Source of the DNA: Bacteroidaceae bacterium | Lineage (GTDB): Bacteria; Bacteroidota; Bacteroidia; Bacteroidales; Bacteroidaceae | Assembly: GCA_017535725.1 (NCBI GenBank) | Contig: JAFXTO010000029.1 | Location: forward strand, 1-61,998 | DNA: 61,998 bases | Reading direction: 5' to 3' | In this document: positions 2,860-55,964 of the stretch, piece after piece | Layout of the letters: the number at the start of each line of letters is the position of its first letter | Position numbering within the stretch: position 1 is the first letter of the stretch | Program-made: the position numbers and the translations under genes | The notes under the pieces: model-generated | What the model saw: the letters and a program-made list of their open reading frames with translations, nothing else | Databases searched by the model: none | What the model was told of the DNA's origin: nothing

Positions 2860-3708
2860 ATGCACACAAGACAAGAGAAAATGGACGCGTTCGGGCGACT
2901 GCTCGACGTGATGGACGACCTCCGCGAGAAGTGTCCCTGGGACCGTAAGCAGACCAACGAGAGCCTGCGCCCCAACACCATCGAGGAGACCTATGAGCTT
3001 GCCGATGCCATCATCAAGGATGACAAGGCAGAGATTTGCAAGGAACTGGGCGACGTTCTCCTACATATCGTTTTCTATGCCAAGATTGGCTCTGAGACGG
3101 GCGACTTCGATATTGCCGACGTCTGCAACAAACTCTGTGACAAACTCATCTATCGCCACCCACATGTATTCGGTCCCGAAGCCGAGCGCATCGAGCGAGG
3201 GGAACTGACGGTAGACCAGGTGCTCCAAAACTGGGAACAGCTGAAGGTGAAGGAGAAGGATGGCAACAAGCGTGTGCTCAGCGGAGTGCCCGAGGCACTG
3301 CCATCACTCATCAAGGCCTATCGCATTCAGGATAAGGCTCGTGGCGTGGGATTCGACTGGGAGACCCGCGAACAGGTTTGGGATAAGGTGCGCGAAGAGC
3401 TGGACGAGCTGGAAGCAGAACTCAACCGCGATGACAAGGAGAAGAGCACGCAGGAACTCGGCGACTTCATCTTCGCAGTCATTAACGCAGCCCGGCTCTA
3501 CAAGCTCAACCCCGACACCGCCCTCGAACTCACCAACCGCAAATTCATTCGCCGCTTCACCTATCTCGAGGAACACAGCATCCGCATCGGAAAACCGCTC
3601 ACCGAGATGACACTTGAAGAGATGGATGCTATCTGGGAGGAGGCGAAGAAGCAAGAAGGAGAAGACTCTCCCCCCGCCCTCCCTTTTAGGGAGGGAGCAT
3701 ATACCTGA
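2860..3708 (+). CDS. mazG: Nucleoside triphosphate pyrophosphohydrolase MazG
   Basis: MazG hydrolyses (d)NTPs to NMP and pyrophosphate and is thought to clean non-canonical nucleotides. The protein has the two tandem MazG helical domains: the first with KCPWDRKQTNESLRPNTIEE and ELGDVLLH (residues about 24-75), the second with ARGVGFDWE, EELDELE and ELGDFIFA (about 161-210). Metal-binding EExxE and ELGD motifs are intact. At 282 aa it is slightly longer than the usual 260-270, because the last residues (SPPALPFREG, about 269-279) are encoded by a dispersed palindromic element (3664-3698), not by family sequence. ValS starts 38 bases downstream on the same strand, so the two are probably co-transcribed. 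Confidence 0.95.
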   Translation: MHTRQEKMDAFGRLLDVMDDLREKCPWDRKQTNESLRPNTIEETYELADAIIKDDKAEICKELGDVLLHIVFYAKIGSETGDFDIADVCNKLCDKLIYRHPHVFGPEAERIERGELTVDQVLQNWEQLKVKEKDGNKRVLSGVPEALPSLIKAYRIQDKARGVGFDWETREQVWDKVREELDELEAELNRDDKEKSTQELGDFIFAVINAARLYKLNPDTALELTNRKFIRRFTYLEEHSIRIGKPLTEMTLEEMDAIWEEAKKQEGEDSPPALPFREGAYT

Positions 3709-3811
3709 CTAGATTTGATAGGATATAAAGATAAAAACAACATATTATGAGCGAAAACAAAACTTCAAAAGAAACTGCTCCCTCCCTAACAGGGAGGGCG
3801 GGGGGAGAGTC
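3664..3811. repeat. Paired palindromic element, mazG|valS junction
   Basis: Two 35-base copies, 3664-3698 and 3777-3811, are inverted relative to each other and differ at one position when aligned. Each copy is itself palindromic around CCCTCCCT(n)AGGGAGGGAG. The spacer holds the mazG stop and the valS start at 3747. The left copy is translated as the MazG tail (SPPALPFREG) and the right copy as residues 11-22 of ValS ([12 protein letters not shown]). The same family occurs at 33647-33786, 39694-39802 and 55848-55964. In mRNA the two copies could pair and place the valS start codon in a loop. Confidence 0.9.
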
Positions 3812-6602
3812 CGGTTGCGGGCTTCCTCCCAAATATTCCCCCTCCGAGGTGGAAGGAAAATGGTACCAGTATTGGTTAGACAACAAACTCTTCAGTTCCA
3901 AGCCCGACGGCCGTGAGCCCTATACCGTGGTCATCCCACCACCCAACGTGACGGGCGTCCTCCACATGGGCCATGTGCTGAACGAGACTATTCAGGACAT
4001 CCTCGTGCGCCACGCCCGCATGGAGGGCAAGAACGCCTGCTGGGTGCCCGGCACCGACCACGCCAGCATCGCTACCGAGGCCAAGGTCGTCAACCGTCTG
4101 GCCGAACAGGGCATTAAGAAGACCGACCTCACCCGCGAGGAATTTCTCAAACACGCTTGGGCATGGACCGAGGAGCATGGAGGTATTATCCTCAAGCAGT
4201 TGCGCAAGCTCGGATGTTCTTGCGATTGGGACCGCACCGCCTTCACCATGGACGGTCCCCGTAGTGAGAGCGTCATCAAGGTCTTTGTGGACCTCTACCG
4301 CAAAGGACTCATCTACCGCGGCGTGCGCATGGTCAACTGGGACCCCAAGGCGCTCACCGCCCTCTCCGACGAAGAAGTGGTTTATAAGGAAGAGCACACC
4401 AAGCTCTACTACATGAAGTACTATCTAGAAAATCTAGAAGGTCTAGACAGTCTAGGATATCTAGATAATCTAGAAAATCTAGAATCTGCTGGCAACGTCA
4501 TCCACCGCGACTCCCGCGGCTACTACGCAGTGGTTGCCACCACCCGTCCTGAGACCATCATGGGCGACGTCGCCATGTGCATCAACCCCAATGACCCGAA
4601 GAACCAGTGGCTGAAGGGAAAGAAAGTCATCGTGCCCGTCGTGGGCCGCGTCATCCCCGTCATAGAGGACGAATACGTGGACATCGAGTTCGGTACAGGC
4701 TGTCTGAAGGTCACCCCCGCCCACGACGTCAACGACTACATGCTCGGCGAGAAGTACAACCTCGAGGCCATTGACATCTTCAACGACGACGCCACCCTCT
4801 CAGAGCGCATCGCCACCGCACAGCAGGCAGCGCTCGCTGCCAACACAGTGCCCGATGATTTTGTCATCGGGTTAGAAAAGTACGTCGGCATGGAACGCTT
4901 CGCTTGCCGTAAGCAGATTGCCGAGGACATGGTGGCCGCAGGCCTCATGGAGAAGATTGAGGACTACGACAACAAGATTGGCTGCTCCGAGCGCACAGGT
5001 GTGCCCATCGAGCCCAAGCTCTCCATGCAATGGTTCCTGAAGATGCAGCACATGGCCGACATCTCTCTTGCACCCGTCATGAACGACGACATACAGTTCT
5101 ACCCTGCCAAATACAAGAACACCTACCGCCACTGGCTCGAGAACATCAAGGACTGGTGCATCAGCCGCCAGCTTTGGTGGGGACATCGCATCCCGGCGTG
5201 GTATCTGCCCTCCGGAGGATTCGTCGTCGCCGAGAATGAGCAGGAAGCCTTGCAACTCGCCCGTGAGAAAAGTGGCAACAACCTCCAGTTGAGCGAGTTG
5301 AAACAGGACGAGGACGCCCTCGACACCTGGTTCTCCAGCTGGCTATGGCCCATCAGCCTCTTCGATGGCATCCGCAACCCCGGCAACGAGGAGATGAAGT
5401 ATTACTATCCCACCGCCGACCTCGTGACGGGTCCGGACATTATTTTCTTCTGGGTGGCCCGCATGATTATGGCAGGCTACGAATACGAGGGCAAGATGCC
5501 GTTCCGCCATGTCTATTTCACAGGTATCGTCCGCGATAAGCTCGGCCGCAAGATGTCCAAATCCTTGGGCAACAGCCCCGACCCGCTGGATCTCATCGAG
5601 CGCTTCGGAGCCGACGGCGTGCGTATGGGTATGATGCTTTCTGCCCCTGCCGGCAGCGACATCCTGTTCGACGAAGCCCTCTGCGAGCAGGGTCGTAACT
5701 TCAACAACAAGATATGGAATGCCTTCCGTCTCGTTAAGGGATGGGAAGTGGCAGACGTCGAGCAGCCCGAGGCCGCCAAATTGGCTACCCAATGGTTTGC
5801 TGCCAAACTGCGTCTCGCAGCTGAGGAGCTGGCTGACGACTTTTCGAAGTACCGCCTCTCGGAAACTCTGATGACGGTCTATCGTCTTTTCTGGGACGAG
5901 TTCTCCTCCTGGTATCTCGAGATGGTTAAGCCCGCCTACGTGGATGGCAAGCCGCAGCCCGTGGACCGCACCACTTACGATGCCACCCTTCAATATTTCG
6001 AGGTGTTGCTGAAGATGATGCATCCCTTCATGCCCTTCATCACCGAGGAACTGTGGCAAGCTCTTTATGAGCGTCAGGAGGGAGAGAGCATCATGCGTGC
6101 TGAACTCCATCTGCCCGCCGCCACGGAGGAAGACCGCCAGCTCTGTGCCGACTTCGAAGCTGTGAAGGAAGTGGTGACATCCATCCGTGCCATCCGTAGC
6201 CAGAAGAACATTGCACCCAAAGAAAAGCTCACCTTAGAGATTGTCTGCGAGGACAAGCAATCTTCAACGCTTCATAGTTTCAACGTTGCAATATCCAAGA
6301 TGGCTAACCTCTCTGCCATCGATATGGTGACAGAGAAGTCGAAGGGCAGCGCCAGCTTCCTCGTCGGCACCAGTGAGTATGCAGTGCCTCTGGGCAACCT
6401 CATCGACCTTGATGCTGAGCGCAAGAAGCTCGAAGCAGAACTCCAGCGTATTGAGTCCTTCCTTGCCAGCGTGGAAAAGAAGCTCGCCAACGAGCGTTTT
6501 GTCCAGAATGCACCCGCTGCCGTGGTAGAGATGGAACGTAAGAAGCAGGCCGATGCCCAGCAGAAAATCGTATCCATCCGTGAGACCTTGGCTGGAATGT
6601 AA
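3747..6602 (+). CDS. valS: Valyl-tRNA synthetase
   Basis: ValS charges tRNA-Val in the cytoplasm. The class Ia signatures are clear: [13 protein letters not shown] (HMGH at 73-76), the editing-domain motif [10 protein letters not shown], the zinc/insert region, KMSKS at 602-606, and a C-terminal coiled-coil arm ([19 protein letters not shown]). The 951-aa length exceeds the usual roughly 870-880 for Bacteroidetes for two visible reasons. Residues 11-22 are encoded by a palindromic element. Residues 227-247 are seven copies of a Leu-x-x tripeptide ([21 protein letters not shown]) encoded by a 9-bp tandem repeat at the entrance to the editing domain. Catalytic residues look intact, so the gene should be functional. 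The start at 3747 is the only ATG before the core; an upstream-deleted start is not needed. Confidence 0.97.
4423..4485 (+). repeat. 9-bp tandem repeat inside valS (7 units, TCTAG core)
   Basis: Seven consecutive 9-base units of the form (a/g)TCTAGann run from 4423 to 4485. The unit is a multiple of three, so it stays in frame and adds a Leu-x-x ladder to ValS. CTAG is usually rare in bacterial DNA, and the CTA leucine codon is unlike the CTC/CTG used elsewhere in this gene. This marks it as an expanded repeat rather than family sequence. Confidence 0.92.
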
Positions 6603-9873: not shown

Positions 9874-10050
9874 TTAGTCGAAGATGGACTCGCCGTAGAA
9901 GTTCTCCTTGACATCGGCTTCTTCGGGGGCATCACCCACGCCAAGCTCAATGTCAGTGTCGCCGCCAATGCCGGTGATGCTGGCTGCAATCATCGTTTCT
10001 TCCTGTACGTACTGCACGTCCAAGGCAGGTGTCATATATTTCTTTTTCAT
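9874..10050 (-). CDS. Small peptide with conserved leader and Gly-Gly motif (copy 1)
   Basis: The 58-residue product starts MKKKYMTPALDVQYVQEE, continues through MIAASITGIGG and ends in an acidic 28-residue tail finishing YGESIFD. The paralogue at 14922-15104 has an almost identical first 28-30 residues and a diverged tail, which is the pattern of a leader and core peptide with a double-glycine boundary. The ATG at 10050 is chosen over the one at 10056 because it aligns with the paralogue's start and the upstream DNA is conserved from there. It lies downstream of the giant protein gene on the same strand (80 bases). I know of abundant small Bacteroidales proteins of this type but of no assigned function. 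No transporter/protease or modifying enzyme is adjacent. Confidence 0.75.
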   Translation of the reverse strand: MKKKYMTPALDVQYVQEETMIAASITGIGGDTDIELGVGDAPEEADVKENFYGESIFD

Positions 10051-10087
10051 AATCATATATTGTTTTTGAAATTAATCAAGATGCTCT

Positions 10088-10126
10088 CCTCGCCCCTCCC
10101 TTGCGAGAGGGGGTTGGAGGTGGGCC
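10088..10126. repeat. Single palindromic element (GGGAGGG family, variant)
   Basis: CGCCCCTCCCTTGCGAGAGG and the following GGGTTGGAGGTGGG form a hairpin with a G-rich tail shared with the copy at 15142-15180. It lies 4 bases downstream of the giant gene's stop (on the minus strand) and upstream of the small peptide gene. It could end or attenuate transcription between the two. Confidence 0.75.
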
Positions 10127-10130
10127 TTTT

Positions 10131-13100
10131 TTACTTGATGATTACCTTCTTGCCGTTCACGATGTACAGACCCTTCTGAGCCTTGTTCACGCGCTGACCG
10201 GCGAGGTTGTAAACAGTGCCGTTCTCGGTGGCATTGTCATTCATCTCGCTGATGGCAGTTGGCAGATTGAATTCTTCACCGTTGACGAGGAACTTCACTT
10301 CTTGACCTTCACCAGTCTTTTCGTGGATATAAGCGCGGAAAGCCTTGATGGTGGTTTCACCAGCACTCCTGTAGATGGCTCCGTTACCGATGAAGTAGTC
10401 ACCAGCGGCGATGGCTGTGATATCAGCATAAGTGCCGACAAAGTCGAAGTTATTGCCGGATACCACAGGATAATTGCCAGTAAAGCTCTTGAACATCACG
10501 GCGCTGAAGGTCTTCGCTCCTGTGGAAGCAGTAGCATCGCCGATGAGCACGGGCACGTTAGCTTGAATGGTGTTGTCTGCCTTCGTGCTGAAGTTGATGG
10601 TTACATTGTCAGCGTCATCGCAGGTCTCAGAGTAAGTATAAACTTTTGCATTCTCTCCGAAAGCATAAGCTACCTGTTCAGCATCGAGATCGAAGGGCAG
10701 GCAAACAGTATTGTAACCAGCAACAACCTTTCGGGTCATGGTGACGGTCTCATAGTAGGTGCGGTTGATGGGCTCGAAAGTGGTTCCTTCGTTCAATGCG
10801 AGTGCAGCAGAAGCGACTTTCACGAGGCAGACATCAGTGAGATGAGCATTACCATTCTGCTCAATGCTCAGAATGTAGTTGCCAGCGGCACCTGTGGTGA
10901 AGTAAGCTTCAGCTGTAACGAAGTTCGTGCCATTCTCTGCAGCTGCGAACTCTGTTATGGGCAGAGCCTCATTATCGCCGTTGATTACGCTTGCCTTCAT
11001 CCAATTTTGCCAGTCATTGCCATGCTTGCTATATTTGAATGAAAGTTTATAAGTTTGGTTTTCTGCCAGCGGCATGGTGTAAGCGCCTTCTTTACCATAT
11101 TCCCAAGCACCATTCGTGTTGTAGTACCAAGCCGTGGTCGTTCCTTCTGCAACGCCATTAGCTTCGGCTGTAAGACCCGTAATCTGCTGGCCCCAACCGT
11201 TGTTACTGCGGCTCCATCCCTTAGGATTGTTGCCTGTGCCGGTCTTAGCAAATGTTCCGTTGTAGATAGCATCCACATCAGTAGCGTTGATTGCCCAGTT
11301 CTCATCTTCGATAGCTGCGGTAGCTGCGGTAACCTCTGCTGCGCTAGCAATTTCTGTGTCTAAAGTCTTGGCAGCGTCCAGTGCTGCGAGTACCTCAATG
11401 TTGTTGTAGGGAGCATATTCATCTTTACTGAAGCCCAGCGTCTTGCTCTCAGCATTGGTAATCGCATTAGCCAATGCGTTCTTCTGTTCGGTTGTCGCAC
11501 CAGTGAATACAGCATACTTTACATTCTTGAATGCCAACCAGTGTGCGTTGTTGTCTTCTGCTACGTTGATGTTAATGTTCAAGACGCCATCCTCACCAAC
11601 AGTACCAATGGCACGGAAAGTACCATAGAAACGGGCATTGGCATCTTTCTCGCCTGTGCAGAGGTCGGTGGCCTCGCCGCCATTGATATCAAGTGTGATG
11701 CCTGAAACAGTTGTTTCCTCACCTGCGTTCTTTGAAATACGGACTAAGACATCAACGGAATACACCCCTGGCGTAACTCCAGTAACTGTTGCCGTCAGGG
11801 TGCGTTCAGCCAGTTTTCCTTCTGCTGTGTAATCAACGTAGTATTCAAAGAACGGGGTAGTCATACCAGAACCATCGGTATTGCCCTCAGTTGACCAAGT
11901 ATTAATATAATAAGGTGAATTCTCCCCGTCAAAGTTTGGAGCGGAATTCCACGCGCTGAGCAGGAAGTTATCAACGGTAATAGCTGCGTGCCAATCTGTT
12001 TGAGTTGAGGGGTTCTGCAGGGCTTCGGCTTCCTCATCAGTCAGACTGTTGTCTTCATACTTGCTCTTCGGTGTTGTGTAATAGGTATCAAGAGCCTCGG
12101 CCGTATAGACATTTGTTGCATCAATTATTGCCTTCATTGCTGTCAGTTTTTCATTAGCTGCAATGTAGGCATTCTTAGATGCATTGGCTGCGGCGATAGC
12201 CTCCTCCAAAGCACCATAATTCTCCATCGTTTGCTCGCTCTCAAATGCATTCAATGCAGCAGTTTGCTCAGCAGCAATAGTGCTGTTCATCTTATCAGAT
12301 ACCACCGTTGCCTTCAAGGCAGCAGCAGTTTCATCATCTACAGCATTACCCTTGAAGTAGAGGTGGTAGTCATCGGCACCAGCCCAGCCTTGTCCTGTTG
12401 TCTTCGCATAGAAGCCGATAGTCACATCACCCGTTGCATGTACTTCGAAGTCAACTTCTGTCCAACCCCAACCATTGCCAAGTTCGCCACCAGTACTGCC
12501 ATCACGATGGTTGTCAGTACTTTTGTTCAAGGCACTGTTTTCTTGGTTCACATAGACATTGGCATCTGTAATCTCGGAAGCCTTGGCTCGTGTCGCAGCC
12601 TTCAACATGTAGTAACCGGCAGGCAGTGATTCCACCTTTTGGCTCTTATTGAGAGTAGAGTTCCAACCGCAATCGAAATATCTGTTATCAGGAGCGTCTG
12701 TGTATTGTTGTCCACTGGCTGTTCCTGCCGCAGACCAACCAGTCCCCGTAACAGCAGCATCGGCAATCTTGAAGGTATAGTCAAACACTTTGCCTTCAGT
12801 TGGCTGAGCACCACCTGTAACGTATGCCTGACGAGCCTCCTCCAAAGTTGTATAGTCATTTGCCAGATTACTTGCATCGGTGCGAGTCTCAATTGTTGTT
12901 GTTGCGTCATTGATTGCAGTTTCAAAGTTTGTCTTATCGCCTGTGGAGTTGGTTTTCTCAGCAGTTGCCAATGCGAGAAGGTCCTTTACTTTGTCGTATG
13001 CCGCCTTGATGCCATCATAGCTGTCAATAAGTGCCTGAAGGGCATCTTTAGCGGAATTATAGCCATCAACACTTGTGGGTTCAGTTTTCCCTAATTCATC

Positions 13101-14921: not shown

Positions 14922-15104
14922 TTAGTCGAAGATGGACTCGCCGTAGTAGTTGTCCTTGACATCGGCTTCATCGGGGATTTCGTCTTCTTCGTCGGCAAGG
15001 CCAATTCCAGAGTTTCCGCCAATGCCGGTGATGCTGGCTGCAATCATCATTTCTTCCTGAACGTACTGCACGTCCAAGGCAGGTGTCATATATTTCTTTT
15101 TCAT
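14922..15104 (-). CDS. Small peptide with conserved leader and Gly-Gly motif (copy 2)
   Basis: The 60-residue product begins MKKKYMTPALDVQYVQEE, runs through MMIAASITGIGG and has an acidic tail (GLADEEDEIPDEADVKDNYY) ending GESIFD. The leader portion is nearly identical in DNA to copy 1 at 9874, while the region after GIGG differs in sequence and length. It follows the 1588-aa protein gene by 81 bases with a palindromic element between, exactly as copy 1 follows its own giant gene. Two parallel copies in the same context argue that this is a real gene. Function unknown; a secreted or processed peptide is inferred from the double-glycine-like boundary. Confidence 0.77.
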   Translation of the reverse strand: MKKKYMTPALDVQYVQEEMMIAASITGIGGNSGIGLADEEDEIPDEADVKDNYYGESIFD

Positions 15105-15141
15105 AATCTTATAGTATTTTTGAAATTAATGATTAGACCTT

Positions 15142-15180
15142 CCTCACCCCTCCCTTTCGGGAGGGGCTTGGAGGTGGGTC
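15142..15180. repeat. Single palindromic element (GGGAGGG family, variant)
   Basis: CACCCCTCCCTTTCGGGAGG and the following GGCTTGGAGGTGGGTC closely match the copy at 10088-10126. The copy sits immediately downstream of the giant gene's stop and upstream of the small peptide gene. Confidence 0.75.
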
Positions 15181-15185
15181 TTTTT

Positions 15186-18100
15186 TTACTTGATGATTAC
15201 CTTCTTGCCGTTCACGATGTACAGACCCTTCTGAGCCTTGTTCACGCGCTGACCAGAGAGGTTGTAGATAGCATCGTTCTCAACTGCTTCACCATTGATT
15301 TCGCTGATGCTGGTCTCGATACCGCCGATGAAGAGCTTGACGGCATTGGTAACATTCGGGTTTTCGAGTAGGATATATGCACGGAAGGCTTTGATGTTGG
15401 TTGAGCCAGCGCTCTTGTAGATAGCGCCATTACCAATGAAGAAGTGGCCTTCGCCAATGGTGGTGGGACCCCAAACACCAACGAAGCTGGCATTCGTACC
15501 CGCAACAATCGCACCCTCAGTAGGAGCAACAACCTGCACACCATTGAATACCTGAGCATCGCTGGCCTTGGTAGCCTTTACGAGGACAGGTGTGTTGGCG
15601 GAGATGGTTCCTTCAATAACCTTGTTGAAGTTGATAGTAAGGTCCTCAGCATTCTCTTCACCATTTTCGCTGAAAGCATATACTTCTGTACCTTCACCGA
15701 AGGCGTTCTGCACCTGACTTGAAGTCAGGTCGAAGGGCAGGACTACAGTATTGTAACCATTCTTTATGGTGCGAGTCATGGTCACGTTCGCAACGTCGAC
15801 ATCCTCAATGGTGTTGTTAGAATCCTCTTTGTAAGCCACAGCGGTAGCGATGTTGGTCTTGGAGAGAAGTTCGCCATCACAGACGCTGAACCATTGCATG
15901 ACACCATCAGCCTCAGCATGTACGGTCATCGTGACTTCTGTTTCTTCTGTGAGGGTGAAAGGCAGATAGTTCCAGACAAATCCGCGACCAGTACCACCAT
16001 TTGCAAATTCGCCTTCGTCAAAGCTGGCTACACCAGCGGTGGTGATACCCTTACCCGTGTCACCCAAGTTGGGGATTGGACCATCCATTGTGGCTGCGGA
16101 ACAGGTAATCTTTGCCGTTGTGTTGGTTCCAGAGGCTGCACGAGCTGCAACCTTGATAACATATTCACCAGCGGGTAAGGTGCAGATCTTCTGATAGTTG
16201 GCAGTAAACGTTGCTCCACTTGTGCTCCAACCACCTTTAGGCTGTTCATAGTAGGTACGTGCGGTTCCGCTCCAGTGCTGGCTGGTCAGAAGTTCAAATT
16301 CAACTTTAGTGTTGCCGTTCACAGAACCTGATTTATCCCAAGTGGTGAAATCTCCAATCTTAGAGGTTGCGGAGTAGGGATAAGCGTCAGCAACGAAGGT
16401 GTATTCTGCAACCTTCAAAGTCTTGAATGCTGCCAAAGCCTCATCTGCAGTGGTGGGTGCATCAACGGTGATCGTGTTGCTGATAGCTTGAGCGATAGCC
16501 AACTCGGAAACATAGAGATTATAGTTCAAAGCAGCAGCGGTGAAAGCTGTGGTAGTAGTTGTCAGGGCTGTAGCTGCCTCTGCATACTCAGCTGCAGTTG
16601 AAGGCACTAGTGCAATGGCAATAGTCAAATTATCCTTCTCTGCACCAGTTACGTTCTCATAGGCATCATCAGCGATTGCAGCATCTGCGGCTGCCTTAGC
16701 TGTATTGTAAGCTGCAAATGGCTCAATGAAGGCGGCTGCAGCAGCTGTAGCCTCTGTTAGAGCTGTTGAAGCGGTGTTATACTGATCGGCAGTTCCACTC
16801 TCCAACGTGTTCTCATTGATTGCTTCCTGCAAGCTGTTGTATGCGTTTGTAGGAATAGAACCCTGTTCAATTGCCTTGGCAGCAGCAAGAGCATTGTCGT
16901 ATATATCTTTCGCAACGGAAAGCTTGTCCTCATCGGTAAGCTGGCGAACATATGTCAACTTGAAGTTATCGCAAGCAAACCAGCGACCAGTTAGGGCGGC
17001 GATGTTCTTCACACCGATGCGAAGCTCACCGTCAACTACGAGGATTTCACCTGTGGTATAAGGAAGGAAGGTCTCACCATCGGTAGTTACAAGAGCTTGT
17101 ACTTCGTTAGTTGCAGTCTTTCCATAAAGGCCTGCTTTTCCACCACCATCCCATGATGCGCCTTCTTCGCCATTCGTGGAGTTCAGCATGTCAGCACTAA
17201 TCGTGTAGGCACCATTGGGCAGACCAGAAAGTACTTGATAGTAGTCGAAGGACTTTCCTGCTGCCTTTTCATCTAAAGTGTATTGCCCCCAGAATTCCAT
17301 AGCATCATTAGAGGGCTTAAGAGGACCACCTGCATAACCGCCATTAGCATTGATATCGCATGTCCAACCATTAACATTGCCGTCAATGCCAGGATTAACG
17401 ATGTAAGCCGTCATGTCGCAACCATCGGCGGGCTGAGTCTGAGCTTTACATGCAGTTGCAAGGGCAACTTGTGCAGCGGCCTTTTGTTCGTTTGTAACAC
17501 TCTCTAAGGTGTTGTTGTCGTATGCAGCCTGAATAGTAGCAATAGTCTCATTTGCAGCATAGCTTGCCTGACCAGCTGCATCATATATGTTTGCAGCATC
17601 AAGAATGGCCTTTGCTTCTACATAGTTGGCAATAGAAGCCTCTGCATTGGCAACAGCGGTATTCAGAGCTGCGGTAGCGGTCCGAATAGCTTCCTTATCA
17701 GTCATATCTACTTTGCCTTCATCGAATGTCTCAATGGTTTCACTCAGAGCTGTACGTACAGCTGCAGCCATCTTGTCTTCCGTGGCAACTGTCGTCTTTG
17801 CCGTAGCAAGAGCTGCTGGATATGCCTCGTAAATTGCAGCAGCAGCGATGAAAGCTGAAGTTGCAGCCTCCAAAGCTCCTATCTTTTCAAGATAGTCTGC
17901 CTTCTTGGAATTTCCGTCGGGAGCATCGTTAATAGCAGCTTCCAAAGCGTCATACTCTTCAGCGCCTTCTATCAAAGCAGGATGATCTTCCTTAGCCTTA
18001 TTAGCGGCTACAACAGCAGCAGTCCACTGGTCTGCATATACAGAATAATCAGGAGCACCATAGAATTTCAGTGTAAAGTTGCGGAAGATAGTCCAGCGGT

Positions 18101-22602: not shown

Positions 22603-24699
22603 ATGGAAGCAATGGTAACGAATCCGACGTGGATTTTCCTCGTCATGCTGCTGATTATCCTGCTGGCACCTGTCGTGCTGCGCAGTCTGCGTGTGCCCCA
22701 TATCATCGGGCTCATTCTGGCTGGCTTGATTGTGGGTCCCAACGGGTTTCACGTGCTGGACCGCGACAAATCCATCGAGCTCTTCGGTCAGGTGGGCATC
22801 TACTACATCATGTTCCTGGCGGGACTGGAGATGGATATGGGCAGCTTCCGTCGCCACGGACGTCAGGGTTCCGTGTTTGGTCTGCTGACCTTCACCATCC
22901 CCTTGCTCTTCGGCTTTGCCGTAGGGCGTTGGGTGCTGGGACTGAGCACCGCTTCCTCCTTGTTGCTCAGTAGCCTGCTCTCTTCCCATACCTTGGTTAC
23001 CTATCCTATCGTGGGGCGCTACGGCTTGGGCAAGCATCCGAGTGTCGTTCATGCTATCGTGGCAACGGCCATCGCTTCCTTCGGGGCGTTGTTGCTGCTG
23101 GCTATTGTGGTGCAGGGCGTGCGTGGCGGTGGCAGCGGCTGGTACTGGCTTAGTTTCGGCGTTGGTATCGTGGCGTATATTGCAGGTGTAGCATACGTGT
23201 TCCCAAAGTTTGGACGCTGGGTTCTGCGGCGCAACGAGGATGCGGTGACGCAGTTCGTCTTTGTCCTCGTCCTCGTCTTCATCAGTGCCTGGCTGGCCTC
23301 CTTGGTGGGATTGGAAGGACTCTTGGGCGCGTTCCTCGCAGGACTGGTGCTGAACCGCATCATCCCCCGTGGAGGACCGTTGATGGTACGTCTGGAGTTC
23401 GTGGGTAATGCCATCTTCGTACCTTATTTTTTAATAGGTGTCGGCATGATTATTGACATCCATGTGCTCTTCGGGAATACCCAGACGTTGTGGCTGGCGT
23501 TTGTGATTATCACGGCAGCCGTGCTGAGCAAGTGGTTGGCAGCGGTCGTGATGCAACATATTGCCAACGGCAGTCTGGAAGACCGGCGGATGATGTTCGG
23601 ACTGACGAACTCCCATGCGGCAGGTGCGCTGGCTATCGTGATGATTGCCACGGCACCAGAAGTACAGCTGATGGACGCTCAGGTGTTGAATGCCACGGTG
23701 TTGCTCATCCTCGTCTCGTGTATCATCAGTTCCTTCGAGACAGGACGTGCCGCCCGGCGACTGGCCCTGCAGACCACCGAGACGGAGCGCAACCGAGGCA
23801 GTTACCATGGCAAATGCCTCACGGCCTATGCCTACCCGCAGACGGTGGACACCCTGACGCAGTTGTCCATCATGATTCGTAATCCGCATATCGCCGACTC
23901 GCTGATGGGCCTGGCCGTGTCCATGGACGACGACCCCGATGATGAACTGCGCATCAAGGGACAGCATAACTTGGAGCGGGCCAAGCAGATAGCGGCTGCA
24001 GCCAATGTCAGGATGTCCACCATGAGTCGAGTGAGTTCGAACGTTGCCAGCGCTATCGTCCATACCATACGAGAAGTCGATGCCGGCGAGGTCATCCTCG
24101 GTCTGCACGAGACGTCGGACGGAAAGCTGGCGGGTAAGCTGGGCGTTATTTCCCAGAGTATTCTTGCCACGACACACCGCGAAGTGTTGCTGGTGCGTCT
24201 GCAGATGCCACCGGGAACGGTGCGACGTATCATCGTTGCCGTGCCGCCGCAAGCGGAATTCGAGGTGGGCTTCTACAAATGGCTGGAACACCTCTGCCGT
24301 ATCGGGGAACAGACAGGACAGGTCATGCGCTTCCACACCTGTGGCAACACGGGTTATTATATTAAGGAGTACTTAAAGCAGGCGCACCCAGCGGTACAGG
24401 TGGAGATGCACATCGAGAAAGGTTTCGGTACCATGCTGATAGGATTAAAGAAAGAGGTGAATGATGACCACCTGTTGGTCATCGTCTCCTCGCGTACCGG
24501 CTTCATCTCCCATACCGCAGCCTTCAATTCCTTGCCCTCCGTCATCGCACGCGACTTCTCCCACACCAACCTCATTCTGCTCTATCCCGACCAGTACGGC
24601 GACCCGCAAGAGACCCACTCCATCTTCGCACCAAACGGACAGAGTGTGACCCAGCGGCAGTTGCTGTTCGAGGAGTGGCTGAGGAAGTTGAAAAGTTGA
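22603..24699 (+). CDS. Kef-type cation/proton antiporter with C-terminal Usp-like region
   Basis: The first about 390 residues are a CPA2 antiporter domain with roughly 12 membrane segments: VLRSLRVPHIIGLILAGLIV near the start, FLAGLEMDM, and GLLGAFLAGLVLNRI, which is the conserved ion-path region. The remaining 300 residues are hydrophilic and contain two UspA-like halves (EVILGLHETSDGKLAGKLGV; HLLVIVSSRTGFISH), a common Bacteroidetes arrangement. It probably exchanges K+ or Na+ for H+ at the inner membrane. The gene's last codons and its TGA stop already belong to the 8-bp tandem array that follows. A minor alternative is a glutathione-gated KefC, but no TrkA-N domain is visible. Confidence 0.88.
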   Translation: MEAMVTNPTWIFLVMLLIILLAPVVLRSLRVPHIIGLILAGLIVGPNGFHVLDRDKSIELFGQVGIYYIMFLAGLEMDMGSFRRHGRQGSVFGLLTFTIPLLFGFAVGRWVLGLSTASSLLLSSLLSSHTLVTYPIVGRYGLGKHPSVVHAIVATAIASFGALLLLAIVVQGVRGGGSGWYWLSFGVGIVAYIAGVAYVFPKFGRWVLRRNEDAVTQFVFVLVLVFISAWLASLVGLEGLLGAFLAGLVLNRIIPRGGPLMVRLEFVGNAIFVPYFLIGVGMIIDIHVLFGNTQTLWLAFVIITAAVLSKWLAAVVMQHIANGSLEDRRMMFGLTNSHAAGALAIVMIATAPEVQLMDAQVLNATVLLILVSCIISSFETGRAARRLALQTTETERNRGSYHGKCLTAYAYPQTVDTLTQLSIMIRNPHIADSLMGLAVSMDDDPDDELRIKGQHNLERAKQIAAAANVRMSTMSRVSSNVASAIVHTIREVDAGEVILGLHETSDGKLAGKLGVISQSILATTHREVLLVRLQMPPGTVRRIIVAVPPQAEFEVGFYKWLEHLCRIGEQTGQVMRFHTCGNTGYYIKEYLKQAHPAVQVEMHIEKGFGTMLIGLKKEVNDDHLLVIVSSRTGFISHTAAFNSLPSVIARDFSHTNLILLYPDQYGDPQETHSIFAPNGQSVTQRQLLFEEWLRKLKS

Positions 24700-24939
24700 C
24701 GAGTTGACGAGTTGACAAGTTGACGAGTTGACGAGTTGACAAGTTGACAAGTTGACGAGTTGACGAGTTGACAAGTTGACAAGTTGACGAGTTGACGAGT
24801 TGACGAGTTGATGAGTTGACAAGTTGACGAGTTGACAAGTTGACGAGTTGATGAGTTGATGAGTTGATGAGTTGACGAGTTGACAAGTTGACGAGTTGAC
24901 GAGTTGATGAGTTGATGAGTTGACGAGTTGACAAGTTGA
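24693..24939. repeat. 8-bp tandem array, about 31 units of (G/A)AGTTGA(C/T)
   Basis: The array starts inside the last codons of the antiporter gene and fills most of the 321-base gap before lolD. Units are GAGTTGAC, AAGTTGAC and GAGTTGAT in irregular order. The length is not a multiple of three, and open frames across it on either strand are artefacts. It resembles a variable-number repeat. Confidence 0.95.
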
Positions 24940-25020
24940 AGTGGCCGAAAAATCGTCGTGATAACGAAATAACGAAATAACGAAGGCCGCGAAAAAGACT
25001 AAAAATAGAAAGATTGAAAG

Positions 25021-25680
25021 ATGATTCAATTAACAGATATACATAAGTCCTTCGGCGCGTTGGAGGTGCTGAAAGGTATTGACTTGGAAATTGCCAAGGG
25101 TGAGGTGGTCAGCATCGTTGGTCCCAGCGGAGCAGGCAAGACCACGTTGTTGCAGATTATGGGAACCCTGGACCGAGCAGACTGCGGCTCTGTGGTCATC
25201 AATGGCACCGATGTCTCGCGCCTCGGACAGAAAGCCTTGGCGCGATTCCGCAATCAGCAGATAGGCTTCGTCTTCCAGTTCCATCAGCTGCTGCCTGAAT
25301 TCACGGCATTGGAGAATGTGATGATTCCGGGCCTCATCGGAGGACGCAGTCGCAAGGAGACACGTCGGCGTGCCGAAGAACTGTTGGCGTTTATGGGTCT
25401 CGGCGAACGTGCTGACCACAAGCCGTCTGAGTTGTCGGGCGGCGAGAAACAACGGGTGGCAGTCGCCCGTGCCCTCATCAATGATCCGGCCGTGGTGATG
25501 GCCGACGAACCCAGCGGAAGCCTCGACAGCGCCAACAAGGCCGAGCTCCACCGCCTCTTCTTCGACCTCCGAGACCGACTCGGACAGACTTTCGTCATCG
25601 TGACGCACGACGAGGAGCTGGCACGCACTACCGACCGGACCATTCATTTAAGAGATGGGAAAATAGAAAATCCTAGGTAG
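25021..25680 (+). CDS. lolD: ABC transporter ATP-binding protein, LolD-like
   Basis: This ATPase of the MacB/LolD class would energise lipoprotein release from the inner membrane, together with a LolC/E permease not present here. It has Walker [10 protein letters not shown] (34-42), Q-loop [19 protein letters not shown], signature LSGGEKQR (138-145), Walker [10 protein letters not shown] (159-167) and switch His in VTHDEE. The 219-aa length is normal. The last codons, AAT CCT AGG TAG, are supplied by the CCTAGG array that follows. An ABC ATPase for a different MacB-type exporter is the alternative. Confidence 0.88.
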
Positions 25681-25760
25681 TCCTAGGTAGTCCTAGGAAA
25701 CCCTAGGTAATCCTAGGACGTCCTAGGCAAACTTAGGCAATCCTAGGCAATCCTATGAAG
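25671..25760. repeat. 10-bp tandem array, nine units of TCCTAGGnnn
   Basis: Nine 10-base units run from the lolD stop codon to 13 bases before the cvfB start. Six or seven of the nine carry a perfect CCTAGG palindrome. The CTAG core makes it compositionally odd in bacterial DNA and parallels the TCTAGA repeat inside valS. Confidence 0.95.
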
Positions 25761-25773
25761 AAAAGAAAGAACT

Positions 25774-32607: not shown

Positions 32608-33714
32608 TTATTTAATCAGCAGTACGATAATCTTCAGCGCCAAGGTGAAGAATACCATGCGGCTGTTGACATTTTGTGCGATATCCCTTGTCGCCCGTGC
32701 AAATTCCTCGGTGATGGGAATGACGTTGCGCTCGTTGATGAAACGTGCGAAGTTGTGGCTGAATGCGGCTTCTTCATCACTTTGGTCATTGAGCTCCGAC
32801 AAGTGGAAGTTATAGATGAAATTCTCGCGTGTCTGTCGTTGGCAGAAGTTGAGGAACGCTTTCTGAGGTTCACGTCCCATGCCTGCCATCTGCTCTGCCC
32901 AGTCGCGCAAGTCCTTGACCTTTCGCTGATAGCTTAAACGCATCAGCTTTTGGAAGAGTTCCAGGAACTGCCGTTCGTCACGAGGAGGGTGGGCTTGTCG
33001 GTATTCCTCGCGGGAGAGTGGGGGTACGAGCAACCGCTGGGTACGGCTGAGGATGGTTCCCAGCACCAAGTCTGGTTCTTCCGACACGAGTAGAAAGTGC
33101 GTACCAGCAGGTGGCTCCTCAAAGAGTTTCAGCAGTTTGTTGGCCGTCTCCTGGTTCATCTTCTCCGGCAACCATACAATCATCACCTTGCGGCCACCCT
33201 GGTTGGACTTCAATGCCAGCTTACGCTGGATGTTGTCGCTTTCCGCCACGTAGTAGCTGGCTTGCTGGTTGGCTGCATTCATGTCCTCTAACCAGTCGTT
33301 GAGGTCGAAATAGGGACTTGTGAGGACACGTGCGCGCCATTCCTTTATATAATAGTCTGACAACGCATCCTTGGCATCCTTGATTTTGTTGCCGCGGACG
33401 ATGGGGAACGTGAAGAGCAGGTCTGGGTGTTCCAGTTTGGCCGCCATCTTGCAGGACACACATTCGCCGCAGGCACTACCGTCCTCGTGGGGGTGTTGGC
33501 AGAGCAAGGTCTGGGCGAAGGCTACTGCCAGTGCCAGCTTGCCGGAACCTGCGGGGCCACAGAACATCAGGGCATGAGGCACGCGGTCGGCCACCAGGTC
33601 GGCGAGCAAGCGTTGCCATGTGGCAGCCTGGCCGATGAAAAAGGGAGACTCTCCCCCCGCCCTCCCTGTTAGGGAGGGAGCGGTTTGTATTTGACTGGCC
33701 GTTTGCTCTTCCAT
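32608..33714 (-). CDS. holB: DNA polymerase III subunit delta'
   Basis: Delta' is a subunit of the clamp loader that places the beta clamp on primed DNA. The protein has the AAA+ fold: PFFIGQAATWQRLLADLVAD, RVPHALMFCGPAGSGKLALA (Walker A about 51-58), the zinc-binding CQHPHEDGSACGECVSCK, the sensor region VMIVWLPEKMNQETANKLLK and LFEEPPAGTHFLLVSEEP with the SRTQ motif. Residues 11-23 ([13 protein letters not shown]) are not family sequence; they are encoded by a palindromic element (33647-33681). The usual start would align near PFFIGQ, so the element lies between the start codon and the domain. It shares its orientation with ricT and gldH downstream. Confidence 0.93.
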   Translation of the reverse strand: MEEQTASQIQTAPSLTGRAGGESPFFIGQAATWQRLLADLVADRVPHALMFCGPAGSGKLALAVAFAQTLLCQHPHEDGSACGECVSCKMAAKLEHPDLLFTFPIVRGNKIKDAKDALSDYYIKEWRARVLTSPYFDLNDWLEDMNAANQQASYYVAESDNIQRKLALKSNQGGRKVMIVWLPEKMNQETANKLLKLFEEPPAGTHFLLVSEEPDLVLGTILSRTQRLLVPPLSREEYRQAHPPRDERQFLELFQKLMRLSYQRKVKDLRDWAEQMAGMGREPQKAFLNFCQRQTRENFIYNFHLSELNDQSDEEAAFSHNFARFINERNVIPITEEFARATRDIAQNVNSRMVFFTLALKIIVLLIK

Positions 33715-33786
33715 ATTTTTTATAAAGTATGCTTACTATTCTTGATGGTGACCGCTCCCTCCCTAACAGGGAGGGCTGGGGGGGGC
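33647..33786. repeat. Paired palindromic element, metF|holB junction
   Basis: The copies at 33647-33681 and 33754-33786 are inverted relative to each other and share the CCCTCCCTGTTAGGGAGGGA core; they differ in the C-run at the outer end. The first encodes residues 11-23 of HolB. The second ends one base before the metF stop codon. The spacer contains the holB start. Confidence 0.9.
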
Positions 33787-38281: not shown

Positions 38282-39685
38282 TTATTGACTGAGGAGGAAG
38301 GCTTTGAAGTCGTCGAACTTGTTGGATAGTGGAATACTCTGTTTCTGTCCACGCATGAATGCCTGTAACTTCTCTGGTATGGGGAGGTCTAGGTGTAGGA
38401 TGTTGTCTACGGTGTTCTTGAACTTGGCGGGGTGGGCGGTCTCGAGGAAGATGCCGACTTCTCCCTGTTGCAGTTGTTCTTTCAGGGCGCGGTAGCCACA
38501 AGCTCCGTGTGGGTCGAGGACGTAGGCGGTGCGGGCGTAGCAATCACGCATGGTGTCTGCTATCTGTTCATCGGAGTAGGTTGCGCCGTAGATGAACGAA
38601 CCACCCATAACCCCTCCCAGGGAGGGGAGTGGCTGTGAGATGCCGCGTTGGTTCAATCGCTGTTGAACGTCCTCGCGGCTATAGAGGTCGAGGATGCGTG
38701 CGAAGTTGGAGGGATCGCCGACATCCATGGCGTTGGCTATTGTTGGCAGGGAGGGCTGAGGGGTGTAGATGCCCGTCTGCAAGTAGTTGTAGAATACGTC
38801 GTTGGCGTTATTGGCGGCGATGAAGCGGGTGATGGGCAGTCCCATGACGTGGCCGAAGAGGGCTGAGCAGATGTTGCCGAAATTGCCAGAGGGGACGGCA
38901 ACGACGAGGTTGCTGTCGGCGGCGGTGAGGTTGCTGTCGGAGGACAAACCACCGACAACACGAGCCTTGCGGAGTTGGGCGTATGCCCAGAAGTAGTAGA
39001 AGGCCTGGGGGAGGAAGCGGGCGACGTTGATGCTGTTGGCGGAGGTGAGGCGCATGTGGGCATTGAGGTCAGCATCCATGAATGCCGATTTGACGAGTCG
39101 CTGGCAGTCGTCAAAGACGCCATCGACCTCGACGGCGGTGATGTTGCGTCCGAGTGTGGTGAACTGGCATTCTTGGATGGGAGAGACCTTGCCCTTGGGG
39201 TAGAGGACGTAAACGTGGATGCCCTCGACACCGAGGAATCCGTTGGCGACGGCCGAGCCCGTGTCGCCAGAGGTGGCGACGAGTACGTTGACCGCCTCGT
39301 TTGTCCGCTTATCAGCCTTGATGAAGTACTGCAGCAATCGCGCCATGAAGCGGGCCCCTACGTCCTTGAAGGCGAGGGTAGGGCCGTGGAATAGTTCGAG
39401 GGCGTAGATATTGTCTTCCACGCGGACAAGAGGGGTGTCGAAGGAGAGGGTGTCATAGACAATGCGGCGTAAGTCTTCGGCTGACACGTCCTCACCAAAG
39501 AAGGCATCGGCAACGCGATAGGCTACTTCTTGAAAAGTGAGGTCGGCAATCTCGTCCCAGAAAGAGGCGGGCAGTTGTTTGATGACTTCGGGCATATAGA
39601 GGCCACGGTCTTCGGCAAGGCCGCGAACAACGGCTTCACGGAGTGTGGCACGGGCGGCGGTGTGGTTGGTGGAATAGTAAAGCAT
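38282..39685 (-). CDS. thrC: Threonine synthase
   Basis: ThrC converts phosphohomoserine to threonine with pyridoxal phosphate. The start at 39685 (MLYYSTNHTAARATLREAVV) matches the family; a GTG 15 bases upstream falls in a palindromic element's edge and is less likely. The PLP lysine is in GPTLAFKDVGARFM, and LVATSGDTGSAVA, NSINVARFLPQ and VPSGNFGNICS are conserved. Residues around 350-360 (SQPLPSLGGVMGG) are unusual and encoded by a short CCCCTCCCAGGGAGGGG palindrome (38611-38627), possibly a decayed element insertion. It is the last gene of the thrA operon. Confidence 0.95.
   Translation of the reverse strand: MLYYSTNHTAARATLREAVVRGLAEDRGLYMPEVIKQLPASFWDEIADLTFQEVAYRVADAFFGEDVSAEDLRRIVYDTLSFDTPLVRVEDNIYALELFHGPTLAFKDVGARFMARLLQYFIKADKRTNEAVNVLVATSGDTGSAVANGFLGVEGIHVYVLYPKGKVSPIQECQFTTLGRNITAVEVDGVFDDCQRLVKSAFMDADLNAHMRLTSANSINVARFLPQAFYYFWAYAQLRKARVVGGLSSDSNLTAADSNLVVAVPSGNFGNICSALFGHVMGLPITRFIAANNANDVFYNYLQTGIYTPQPSLPTIANAMDVGDPSNFARILDLYSREDVQQRLNQRGISQPLPSLGGVMGGSFIYGATYSDEQIADTMRDCYARTAYVLDPHGACGYRALKEQLQQGEVGIFLETAHPAKFKNTVDNILHLDLPIPEKLQAFMRGQKQSIPLSNKFDDFKAFLLSQ
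38611..38627. repeat. Short palindrome inside thrC
   Basis: CCCCTCCCAGGGAGGGG is a near-perfect hairpin with the same core as the paired elements but without the outer tails. It encodes PSLGG within ThrC. Whether it is a decayed element or chance is open. Confidence 0.5.
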
Positions 39686-39693: not shown

Positions 39694-39802
39694 GACCCAC
39701 CCCTCACCCTCCCTGTGAGGGAGGGGGTGGAATGTATTGAGGTATGTTATTATTTGCATAGGTGACCACTCCCTCCCTCACAGGGAGGGTGAGGGGTGGG
39801 TC
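39694..39802. repeat. Paired palindromic element, thrC|PGM-like junction
   Basis: The copies at 39694-39730 and 39766-39802 are inverted and differ at one of 37 positions. The second copy encodes residues 419-431 of the PGM-like protein ([13 protein letters not shown]). The first copy ends nine bases before the thrC ATG on the minus strand. In the thr mRNA the pair could form a long stem just ahead of thrC. Confidence 0.92.
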
Positions 39803-53612: not shown

Positions 53613-53655
53613 TTTGCAAATCGAAAAATATAAAATAAATAAATCGTAAATCAAA

Positions 53656-53838: not shown

Positions 53839-53841
53839 CCC

Positions 53842-53947
53842 TTGAAAAGATTGAAAGGTTGAGGAGTTGAAAAGTTGAAAGGGACCTATGCAGGTAATCC
53901 ATCTGGCAAGGTGACCTTCAACGTTTCAACTTTTCAACCTTTCAACA
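53842..53947. repeat. Inverted TTGAAAAG-type arrays, rpmF|fabH junction
   Basis: Five 8-base units (TTGAAAAG, TTGAAAGG, TTGAGGAG) at 53842-53882 are mirrored by TTCAACGTTTCAACTTTTCA and ACCTTTCAAC at 53917-53946. The fabH start at 53962 is 15 bases beyond. The transcript could fold into a long purine:pyrimidine stem between the two genes. Confidence 0.82.
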
Positions 53948-53961
53948 TAAACCCGACCTTT

Positions 53962-54960: not shown

Positions 54961-54961
54961 T

Positions 54962-55843
54962 ATGCACAAGTCTGGCTTCGTCAATATCGTCGGCAACCCG
55001 AACGTCGGCAAGAGCACGCTCATGAACCTCCTCGTGGGCGAGCGTATCTCCATTGCCACCTTCAAGGCGCAGACCACGCGCCATCGCATCATGGGTATCT
55101 TGAATACCCCTGAGATGCAAATCTGTTTCTCCGACACTCCTGGTGTCCTGAAGCCGAACTACAAACTACAGGAGCAGATGCTTCACTTCTCTGAGGAAGC
55201 CTTGGAGGACGCTGATATTCTGCTCTATGTAACAGATATGGTCGAGACGCCCGATAAGAATGCAGACTTCTTGCAAAAAGTACAAAACCTGCAGGTTCCC
55301 ATCCTGGTGCTCATCAATAAGATAGACCTCAGTGATCAGCAGTCGCTGACGCAGAAAGTCGAGGAATGGCACGAAGTGCTGCCCTCGGCAGAGATTTATC
55401 CCATCTCAGCTCTCCACCGCTTCGGCGTTGATCAGGTGCTTGCTCGTATTCGGGAACTGCTGCCGGAGTCGCCTGCCTACTTCGACAAAGACACGTGGAC
55501 CGACAAGCCTGCGCGCTTCTTCGTAACCGAGATTATCCGCGAGAAGATACTCCTATATTATAATAAGGAGATACCCTATTCCGTGGAGGCTGTTGTCGAG
55601 AGCTTCAAGGAGACCGATGACCTCATCCGTATAGAGGCTGTCATCTACGTGGAGCGTGAGTCTCAGAAAGGCATCATCATCGGACACCAGGGCGTGGCCC
55701 TCAAGCGCGTCAGTTCCGAGGCTCGTCGTGAGCTCGAACGCTTCTTCGGCAAGAAAATCTACCTCCAATGCTTCGTCAAAGTCGATAAGGACTGGCGCAA
55801 CTCCGAACGCGCCATGAAGCAGTACGGGTACGATCTGGAATAA
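54962..55843 (+). CDS. era: GTPase Era
   Basis: Era binds the 3' end of 16S rRNA and assists 30S assembly. The GTPase motifs are GNPNVGKST (11-19), the switch II DTPGV, NKIDL and the SALHRFGVD G5 region. The C-terminal KH domain shows VIYVERESQKGIIIGHQGVA. The 293-aa length is normal. It lies two bases after fabH and ends just before a palindromic element pair. Confidence 0.96.
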   Translation: MHKSGFVNIVGNPNVGKSTLMNLLVGERISIATFKAQTTRHRIMGILNTPEMQICFSDTPGVLKPNYKLQEQMLHFSEEALEDADILLYVTDMVETPDKNADFLQKVQNLQVPILVLINKIDLSDQQSLTQKVEEWHEVLPSAEIYPISALHRFGVDQVLARIRELLPESPAYFDKDTWTDKPARFFVTEIIREKILLYYNKEIPYSVEAVVESFKETDDLIRIEAVIYVERESQKGIIIGHQGVALKRVSSEARRELERFFGKKIYLQCFVKVDKDWRNSERAMKQYGYDLE

Positions 55844-55847
55844 CGGG

Positions 55848-55964
55848 CCCAGCCCCCGCCCTCCCTGTGAGGGAGGGAGTGGATACCAAACAAGAAATGA
55901 ATATTAAATAACCATTAGCAAAAGTGTCCGCTCCCTCCCTCACAGGGAGGGCAGGGAGTGGGTC
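55848..55964. repeat. Paired palindromic element, era|der junction
   Basis: Copies at 55848-55882 and 55928-55964 are inverted and share CCCTCCCTGTGAGGGAGGGA. The left copy starts 5 bases after the era stop and the right copy ends 10 bases before the der ATG, so the pair exactly fills the intergenic space. A GTG at 55924 would read the right copy as [13 protein letters not shown] in frame with der. Confidence 0.92.

What the first reader, a model, noticed from the sequence alone, without database searches (positions are those of the whole stretch)
3664..55964. GGGAGGG palindromes as inverted pairs at four operon junctions
Seen directly: pairs at 3664-3811, 33647-33786, 39694-39802 and 55848-55964. 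In each, two 33-37-base copies face each other, are nearly identical, and bracket 45-78 bases lying between two co-directional genes. All four junctions are within operon-like gene runs, not between divergent genes. Inverted pairing means the transcript can fold into a stem of more than 30 bp that encloses or abuts a start codon. This resembles REP/BIME organisation, but the strict pairing around intercistronic gaps suggests a role in mRNA processing or coupling.
Basis: partly seen in the sequence, partly recalled or inferred. Interest (0 to 1): 0.8.

Follow-up and report, generated by a model that had tools for sequence, protein, structure and literature searches.

The report
In-frame palindrome pairs in Bacteroidales
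Short, facing copies of one palindrome are scattered through this bacterium's genome, where they sit either inside protein genes without breaking the reading frame or at the stop/start boundary between neighbouring genes, so that the repeat is probably translated and may even supply the start of the next protein.

Summary
In detail: four facing palindrome pairs lie at the stated places, all between co-directional genes. They belong to a REPIN-like family. In 426 kb of own-genome stretches chosen around exact cores there are 128 copies (one shuffle: 0), with 47 inward-facing neighbour pairs against one outward. Reading them as intercistronic mRNA devices is only half right. Of 130 classified pairs in own and related genomes, 66 lie inside long ORFs, including the only CTP synthase found. 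The other 64 sit at gene junctions, all co-directional (background 682 of 849). At junctions the upstream stop usually ends 0-12 nt before the left arm, and an in-frame ATG usually lies inside the pair, making the right arm an N-terminal extension. Relatives show empty sites, other inserts at the same sites, one inverted spacer, and arms that co-vary. At least four RAYT-like genes exist, one in the window, but none was found flanked by this palindrome. Closest known: REPIN/BIME and Rickettsia palindromic elements; I call it a new variant of that kind. Any mRNA role is untested.

The parts
3664..3706 (+). left arm, pair 1; read as the C-terminal end of mazG (EDSPPALPFREGAYT*)
   Evidence: profile hit 44.9 bits; translation
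3707..3764 (.). spacer, pair 1; holds the end of the mazG stop (3708) and the valS ATG (3747)
3765..3811 (-). right arm, pair 1; read as an N-terminal extension of valS ([13 protein letters not shown])
   Evidence: 54.0 bits; translation; most relatives' valS matches begin at residue 17-27 of this protein, G015 and G019 excepted
33647..33691 (+). pair 2 arm on the holB side (genes on - strand); read as an N-terminal extension of holB
   Evidence: 51.0 bits; translation
33692..33744 (.). spacer, pair 2; holds the holB ATG (33714, - strand)
33745..33784 (-). pair 2 arm on the metF side; begins 3 nt after the metF stop (33788)
   Evidence: 40.4 bits
39694..39740 (+). pair 3 arm on the thrC side (genes on - strand); likely thrC ATG at 39685
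   Evidence: 48.4 bits; thrC start not compared in relatives
39757..39802 (-). pair 3 arm on the apgM side; read as the C-terminal end of apgM (stop at 39750)
   Evidence: 48.6 bits
55849..55889 (+). left arm, pair 4; just after the era stop (55843)
   Evidence: 42.1 bits
55919..55964 (-). right arm, pair 4; the der ATG seen in relatives is 11 nt downstream (55975)
   Evidence: 43.5 bits
8355..9761 (-). RAYT-like gene (DHLH, WQ, YVEDNP by eye, compared with the motif table passage of PMC6006769); candidate mobiliser, not shown
   Evidence: NF047646 REP-associated tyrosine transposase E 2.1e-13, 50.4 bits, under its cut-off of 80; Y1_Tnp 21.8 bits, under the cut-off of 23, 23.3 bits; nearest arm 4.5 kb away

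Best explanation
A family of non-autonomous, REPIN-like palindromic elements. SHOWN by sequence: each unit is two ~47-nt arms facing inward around a variable spacer, with outer ends RGACYCWCC, no detected target-site duplication and two kinds of inner arm end. Units are present or absent at orthologous sites and are found in two settings. (a) Inside ORFs they read mostly as [11 protein letters not shown]...[13 protein letters not shown]. (b) At stop/start boundaries of co-directional genes, mostly tight ones, the spacer (29% GC) usually holds an in-frame ATG and the right arm would be an N-terminal extension. INFERRED: they spread as single-stranded hairpin DNA by a RAYT/IS200-type HUH enzyme. 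Insertions that break translation are lost, so survivors are in frame or at ORF boundaries. The arms are translated. The two arms stay alike, and the spacer can flip or be exchanged, through recombination or template switching between inverted arms. An effect on upstream mRNA stability, as for classical REPs, is possible but secondary.
For: Copies and pairing. In-frame: 36 of 44 intragenic pairs with two clean outer ends have span mod 3 = 2, against 10 of 37 junction pairs; this is partly by construction, since 'intragenic' means an unbroken ORF. Peptides. Of 19 own ORFs with intragenic pairs 17 were scanned in Pfam; hosts include pyrG (only copy found), two uvrA, mfd, mutS2, dsbD, tamB. Junctions (n = 64): all co-directional; right arm in one phase in 45 (binomial 1.8e-9); frame open through the right arm in 56; upstream stop 0-12 nt before the arm in 41. 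Empty or otherwise filled orthologous sites: valS (32), era/der, pyrG (52), uvrA and altronate dehydratase. Shared spacers: three sites in one gene and unlinked genes such as L032/L051. Arms alike: loops identical in 49 of 78 pairs, 18.4 expected, maximum 32 in 5000 permutations. Spacer inversion L099/L122. RAYT-like hits in 24 of 27 same-genus genomes with >=6 copies, 21 of 44 with none, p 4e-4.
Against: No RAYT was found flanked by the palindrome: none in the fetched flanks (up to 1.5 kb) of 36 RAYT/Y1 loci, some of them the same gene fetched twice. GTAG, GTGG and CGTC are absent 5' of the hairpin (0 of 170). The RAYT association is not corrected for phylogeny or MAG completeness, and any hit at E <= 0.001 counts. 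In pyrG site 2, one uvrA and mfd the arms bracket native coding sequence, which insertion of a ready-made unit does not explain. Translation of the arms is inferred from open frames only, and PMC3733652 warns that REPs at ORF N-termini may be misannotation. Gene calls come from a simple ORF/codon caller; some of the 130 pairs are orthologous to each other (11 of 31 spacer matches), so they are not independent.
Confidence: 0.7

Rival explanations
1. Selected intercistronic mRNA elements: the hairpin after the upstream stop protects or terminates the upstream message, while the loop exposes the downstream start, setting operon stoichiometry.
For: 64/64 co-directional; stop directly before the arm in 41/64, and an in-frame ATG inside the pair or within 60 nt after it in 64/64 (no control run); the arm on the upstream-gene side is inner type 1 in 48 of 48 typed; AT-rich spacers; arms co-vary.
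Against: 66 of 130 pairs are inside ORFs; arms co-vary there too (25 of 42 loops identical, 10.2 expected); orthologous junctions in some relatives lack the pair. The unpaired probability around starts is only 0.58 for starts inside the pair against 0.45 after it, with no shuffled control.
Confidence: 0.15
2. Pairs arise by local fold-back template switching: one arm inserts, then an inverted copy is written 20-200 nt away during replication; no transposition of the pair is needed.
For: Arms bracket native coding DNA in pyrG site 2, one uvrA and mfd; arms alike; one spacer inversion.
Against: Inner ends of the two arms differ within intragenic pairs more often than chance (43 of 54; permuted 28.5; the junction set is uninformative); similar spacers occur at unlinked loci (20 of 31 matches, mostly 14-53 nt long).
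Confidence: 0.15
3. Phase-variable invertible switches (invertons): recombination at the inverted arms flips the spacer to switch the downstream start codon or peptide.
For: One orthologous pair with the spacer inverted while arm loops stay with the flanks; spacer pieces shared between loci in both orientations.
Against: 1 of 11 orthologous pairs inspected; junction pairs flank genes such as valS, holB and der, where an OFF state should be lethal (general knowledge); no recombinase was searched for.
Confidence: 0.06
4. Ordinary intrinsic terminators or chance GC-rich palindromes.
For: Stable G+C-rich hairpins next to stop codons. The consensus scan gives terminator-like matches at three of the four window pairs: 6 at pair 1 (0.8 expected; all on the strand opposite to the genes), 4 at pair 2 (0.5 expected; 3 on the gene strand, running into holB) and 1 at pair 3 (0.3 expected; gene strand); none at pair 4.
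Against: Half of the pairs are inside ORFs; the gene-strand matches use one arm end and T-rich host sequence, so they are not a family feature (only the four window pairs were scanned); 0 profile hits in one shuffle; Rfam finds nothing in the window at gathering scores.
Confidence: 0.04

Closest known systems
REPIN / BIME (REP doublets; Bertels and Rainey 2011, PMC3116915, passages seen)
   Same: Short palindromic units in inverted doublets with a spacer, long hairpin, more than 80 exact cores per genome, dispersed, RAYT genes in the genome, singlets as likely remnants.
   Different: About half of the classified pairs are intragenic; no GTAG/GTGG tetranucleotide; no RAYT found flanked by the repeat; 0 of 64 junction pairs convergent.
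Rickettsia palindromic elements (RPE; seen through passages of the review PMC10969869 and of PMC3733652)
   Same: Palindromic elements (~150 bp in the review), nearly half of them inserted in ORFs of unrelated genes, encoding a conserved peptide.
   Different: Other bacteria; peptide not aligned with RPE peptides here; here also a stop/start junction form and two facing arms with shared, locus-specific or native spacers.
Intragenic GTAG/CGTC REP dimers (PMC3733652, passages and one section read)
   Same: REP dimers inside ORFs, uvrA and other repair genes hit, some termini supplying stop codons, uni-REPs close to the 3' end of the upstream ORF.
   Different: That survey finds REPs mainly between unidirectional and convergent ORFs; here 0 of 64 junction pairs are convergent, and the tag tetranucleotides are absent.

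Membership tests
REPIN/BIME | palindromic unit of roughly 20-60 nt | tested here: met
   19-nt hairpin core in a ~47-nt arm
REPIN/BIME | inverted doublets forming a hairpin | tested here: met
   own: 47 inward, 1 outward, 8 tandem within 250 bp; named: 92, 1, 10; median about 35 cross-arm base pairs
REPIN/BIME | mainly extragenic | tested here: not met
   66 of 130 classified pairs intragenic; 9 edge pairs dropped
REPIN/BIME | GTAG/GTGG (or CGTC) tag next to the hairpin foot | tested here: not met
   0 of 170 tetranucleotides, both strands of 85 own cores
REPIN/BIME | cognate RAYT gene flanked by the repeat | tested here: not met
   none in the flanks of 36 RAYT/Y1 loci, some duplicates; window RAYT 4.5 kb from pair 1. 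The genome is 76% complete and one search listed only the best matches, so a cognate RAYT could be missed
Rickettsia palindromic elements | in-frame insertion inside unrelated ORFs | tested here: met
Rickettsia palindromic elements | sequence of a described RPE family | not tested
   no RPE sequence was compared; the names come from paper passages
MITE (DDE type) | target-site duplication | tested here: not met
   81 pairs with clean outer ends; best of 128 length/offset combinations z 2.8, not remarkable for that many
Inverton | spacer found in both orientations at one locus | tested here: inconclusive
   1 of 11 orthologous pairs, between species, not within a culture

The most novel reading that the evidence does not exclude
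A mobile translational-junction cassette: facing palindromes are set around stop/start boundaries or loops of proteins, re-home the start codon inside a hairpin loop, tag proteins with the palindrome's own peptide, fuse neighbouring genes (FGGY-NUDIX), and flip or swap their spacers by recombination between arms. Facing arms can be installed around pre-existing native DNA by a process that I did not find described for REPINs in the passages read.
Probability: 0.2. Interest if true: 0.8.

Novelty: new variant of a known kind. Interest (0 to 1): 0.6.

Why it matters
In-frame palindromic DNA is described mainly from Rickettsia in the passages read (PMC10969869, PMC3733652). Here it recurs in Prevotellaceae/Bacteroidaceae genomes, many from ruminants, with dozens of sites, at least one single-copy core gene and relatives with empty sites. 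One can therefore test directly how proteins tolerate or use inserted peptides, how start codons move, and how inverted arms stay alike. It also warns annotators that N-terminal extensions such as ...[13 protein letters not shown] come from repeats.

Tried and rejected
Strict intercistronic placement: rejected (66 of 130 pairs intragenic). Terminators: some consensus matches at three of four window pairs, not a shared feature. Known RNA family: none in the window at gathering scores. Carriage by viruses: 0 exact matches of one 35-base pattern in viral contigs. Target-site duplication: none. A RAYT flanked by the repeat: none found; tblastn (E 1e-8) with five Y1/RAYT proteins finds none in the 113 named loci. 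My first end-type classifier was misaligned and was replaced. Literature: (PMC open-licence library only; listings and abstract openings seen) show no description of this family; five peptide strings returned 0 papers.

Limits. Own stretches were chosen around exact cores (85 of 86 held), so copies with decayed cores elsewhere are uncounted. The junction background (682 of 849) comes from the same stretches and includes the pair-bearing junctions. One genome per species is held, so within-species polymorphism could not be tested.
Full report
OBSERVATION. The four pairs exist where stated. Genes: mazG/valS, metF/holB, apgM/thrC, era/der. The own genome (2.9 Mb, 72 contigs, 76% complete) has 86 exact cores CCCTCCCTNNNAGGGAGGG; a variant pattern gives 43 forward and 41 reverse matches. 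85 of the 86 lie in the window and the 40 fetched stretches. A 47-nt profile built from them finds 128 non-overlapping copies at >=12 bits in these 426 kb; one dinucleotide shuffle gives none. Neighbours within 250 bp: 47 inward, 1 outward, 8 tandem; 34 copies are unpaired. In 113 named loci from other genomes: 92 inward, 1 outward, 10 tandem.

DISTRIBUTION. Core plus AG occurs in 47 of 150 genomes searched, all 47 among the 91 of the same genus (own included) and 0 of 59 from other families of the order. Of the 80 record titles shown in the capped scan of named genomes, all but one (a Ruminococcus label) read Prevotellaceae, Bacteroidaceae, Bacteroidales or Prevotella, many with rumen, sheep, goat, roe deer, reindeer or buffalo in the name.

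TWO SETTINGS. Of 139 pairs (own 47, named 92), 9 at sequence edges were dropped; 66 lie inside long ORFs and 64 at junctions. All 64 junction pairs are co-directional; background is 682 of 849 junctions in the same stretches (p 2e-6) and 70% of intergenic bases (p 2e-10). Intragenic pairs mostly read [11 protein letters not shown]...spacer...[13 protein letters not shown]. For the 44 with two clean outer ends, span mod 3 is 2 in 36, 0 in 7 and 1 in 1; for 37 junction pairs 10, 11 and 16. This is partly by construction, since an intragenic pair is one that lies in an open frame. Of 19 own ORFs with intragenic pairs 17 were scanned against Pfam (with one more that carries single arms): CTP synthase, two UvrA, Mfd, MutS2, DsbD, TamB, altronate dehydratase (three pairs), PmbA/TldD, TonB receptor, GH43 and others; one had no match. 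The pyrG with two pairs is the only CTP_synth_N match in the genome. Against solved CTP synthases, query 130-169 falls where chain 9kao_A has three residues.

JUNCTION ANATOMY (n = 64). The upstream stop ends 0-12 nt before the left arm in 41, inside the pair in 13, farther upstream in 10. An in-frame ATG lies only inside the pair in 40, only within 60 nt after it in 13, both in 11; 38 of the 51 inside cases have one 56-73 nt before the right arm's outer end (recount). The downstream frame is open through the right arm in 56, and the arm has one phase in 45 (binomial 1.8e-9). Spacers at junctions are 29% GC, intragenic ones 47%, the window 53%. Starts are not known, so some N-terminal extensions (der, thrC) may be unused; for valS one search finds no in-frame ATG within 60 nt after the arm.

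EMPTY AND REFILLED SITES. Two relatives have mazG and valS almost abutting with no element; another (L065) has a different palindrome-like stretch at the same N-terminus, by eye. era/der is TAATATG in G019; G018 has a pair with a similar spacer but another loop in both arms. pyrG site 1 has no such insert in G019, G010 and G028, inserts of similar repeat-like make-up in G003 and G015, and other inserts in G016 and G018. The uvrA site lacks it in G018 and G029, and in G028 (L288) apart from other changes; it is a single arm in G019 and a pair in G016. In L032 (own; counted as intragenic) an element sits where relatives G018, G016 and G003 have the stop and start between an FGGY kinase and a NUDIX gene, giving one 800-codon ORF; in G015 another gene lies upstream.

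ARMS AND SPACERS. Loops are identical within 49 of 78 pairs with two exact cores (18.4 expected; intragenic 25 of 42, junction 24 of 36). Outer flanks match more than permuted (0.901 v 0.835), inner flanks do not (0.499 v 0.533). Inner ends fall into two types by my classifier: of 102 typed pairs 71 are mixed and none is type 2/type 2. The excess comes from intragenic pairs (43 of 54 v 28.5 permuted); at junctions the arm on the upstream-gene side is type 1 in 48 of 48. Mixed pairs lie in one orientation at junctions (28 v 0), in both inside genes (30 v 13; Fisher 1e-3). Of 31 spacer matches, 20 are between different loci (13 intragenic-intragenic, 6 junction-junction, 1 mixed), mostly short. 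At L099/L122, orthologous sites in two genomes, inner arms and spacer are inverted while loops stay with the flanks; the insert is 94% identical, flanks 73-79%, so cassette exchange is as possible as simple inversion. In pyrG site 2, one uvrA and mfd, facing arms bracket native coding sequence; I have no good account of this.

MOBILISER. The genome has at least four RAYT-like genes and one IS200-like gene. None was found flanked by the palindrome. RAYT-like hits and copy number go together (24 of 27 with >=6 copies, 21 of 44 with none), uncorrected for phylogeny or completeness. Absence of target-site duplication fits HUH enzymes (recalled), but also other routes.

FOLDING. Median predicted MFE is -92 kcal/mol (48 pairs with an ATG inside) and -97 (14 with it only after); 2 of 64 were left out for length. 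No shuffled control was run. Terminator-like consensus matches: 6, 4, 1 and 0 at window pairs 1-4 (0.8, 0.5, 0.3 and 0.5 expected).

PRIOR WORK. PMC3733652 (passages and one section) describes intragenic REP dimers, uvrA insertions and stop codons supplied by REPs, and cautions about N-terminal cases; PMC10969869 (passages) reviews RPEs; PMC3116915 (passages) defines REPINs; PMC6006769 and PMC8266576 (passages) cover RAYTs. The kind is known; lineage, junction architecture and arm/spacer dynamics look new as far as the searches named above go.

Noticed in passing
window 4422-4492: In-frame 9-bp CTAGA-type tandem repeat inside valS (peptide [22 protein letters not shown]).
   Followed up: no
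window 24630-24987 and 25654-25763: 8-bp and 10-bp tandem repeat arrays (the second of TAGG..TCC type) at or near ORF ends.
   Followed up: no
window 9939-10254 and 14993-15309: Two 86-87% identical stretches at the ends of two large ORFs, each with a GGGAGGG-like palindrome by eye (10080-10123, 15148-15165).
   Followed up: partly
L032:3478-5880: FGGY kinase and NUDIX genes fused into one 800-codon ORF across an element; separate genes in G018, G016 and G003.
   Followed up: yes
L099:2445-2599 and L122:2565-2719: Orthologous in-gene element with its spacer inverted between two genomes; element more conserved than its flanks.
   Followed up: partly
L027, L028, L032, L106 (LEGSSVSSSRAREG); L037, L051 (PAGTLNSS.FEP): Second, shorter sequences nested in the hairpin of arms, shared between unlinked genes.
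   Followed up: no
pyrG in L261, L262, L263, L266: The same CTP synthase loop carries unrelated inserts in different relatives, an insertion hot spot.
   Followed up: partly
L291 (RAYT-like gene of contig C22): The RAYT-like protein itself carries in-frame tandem peptide repeats (PATVASGQAGAPST).
   Followed up: no
L141: A 3.5-kb contig labelled Ruminococcus carries the element; perhaps mis-binned.
   Followed up: no
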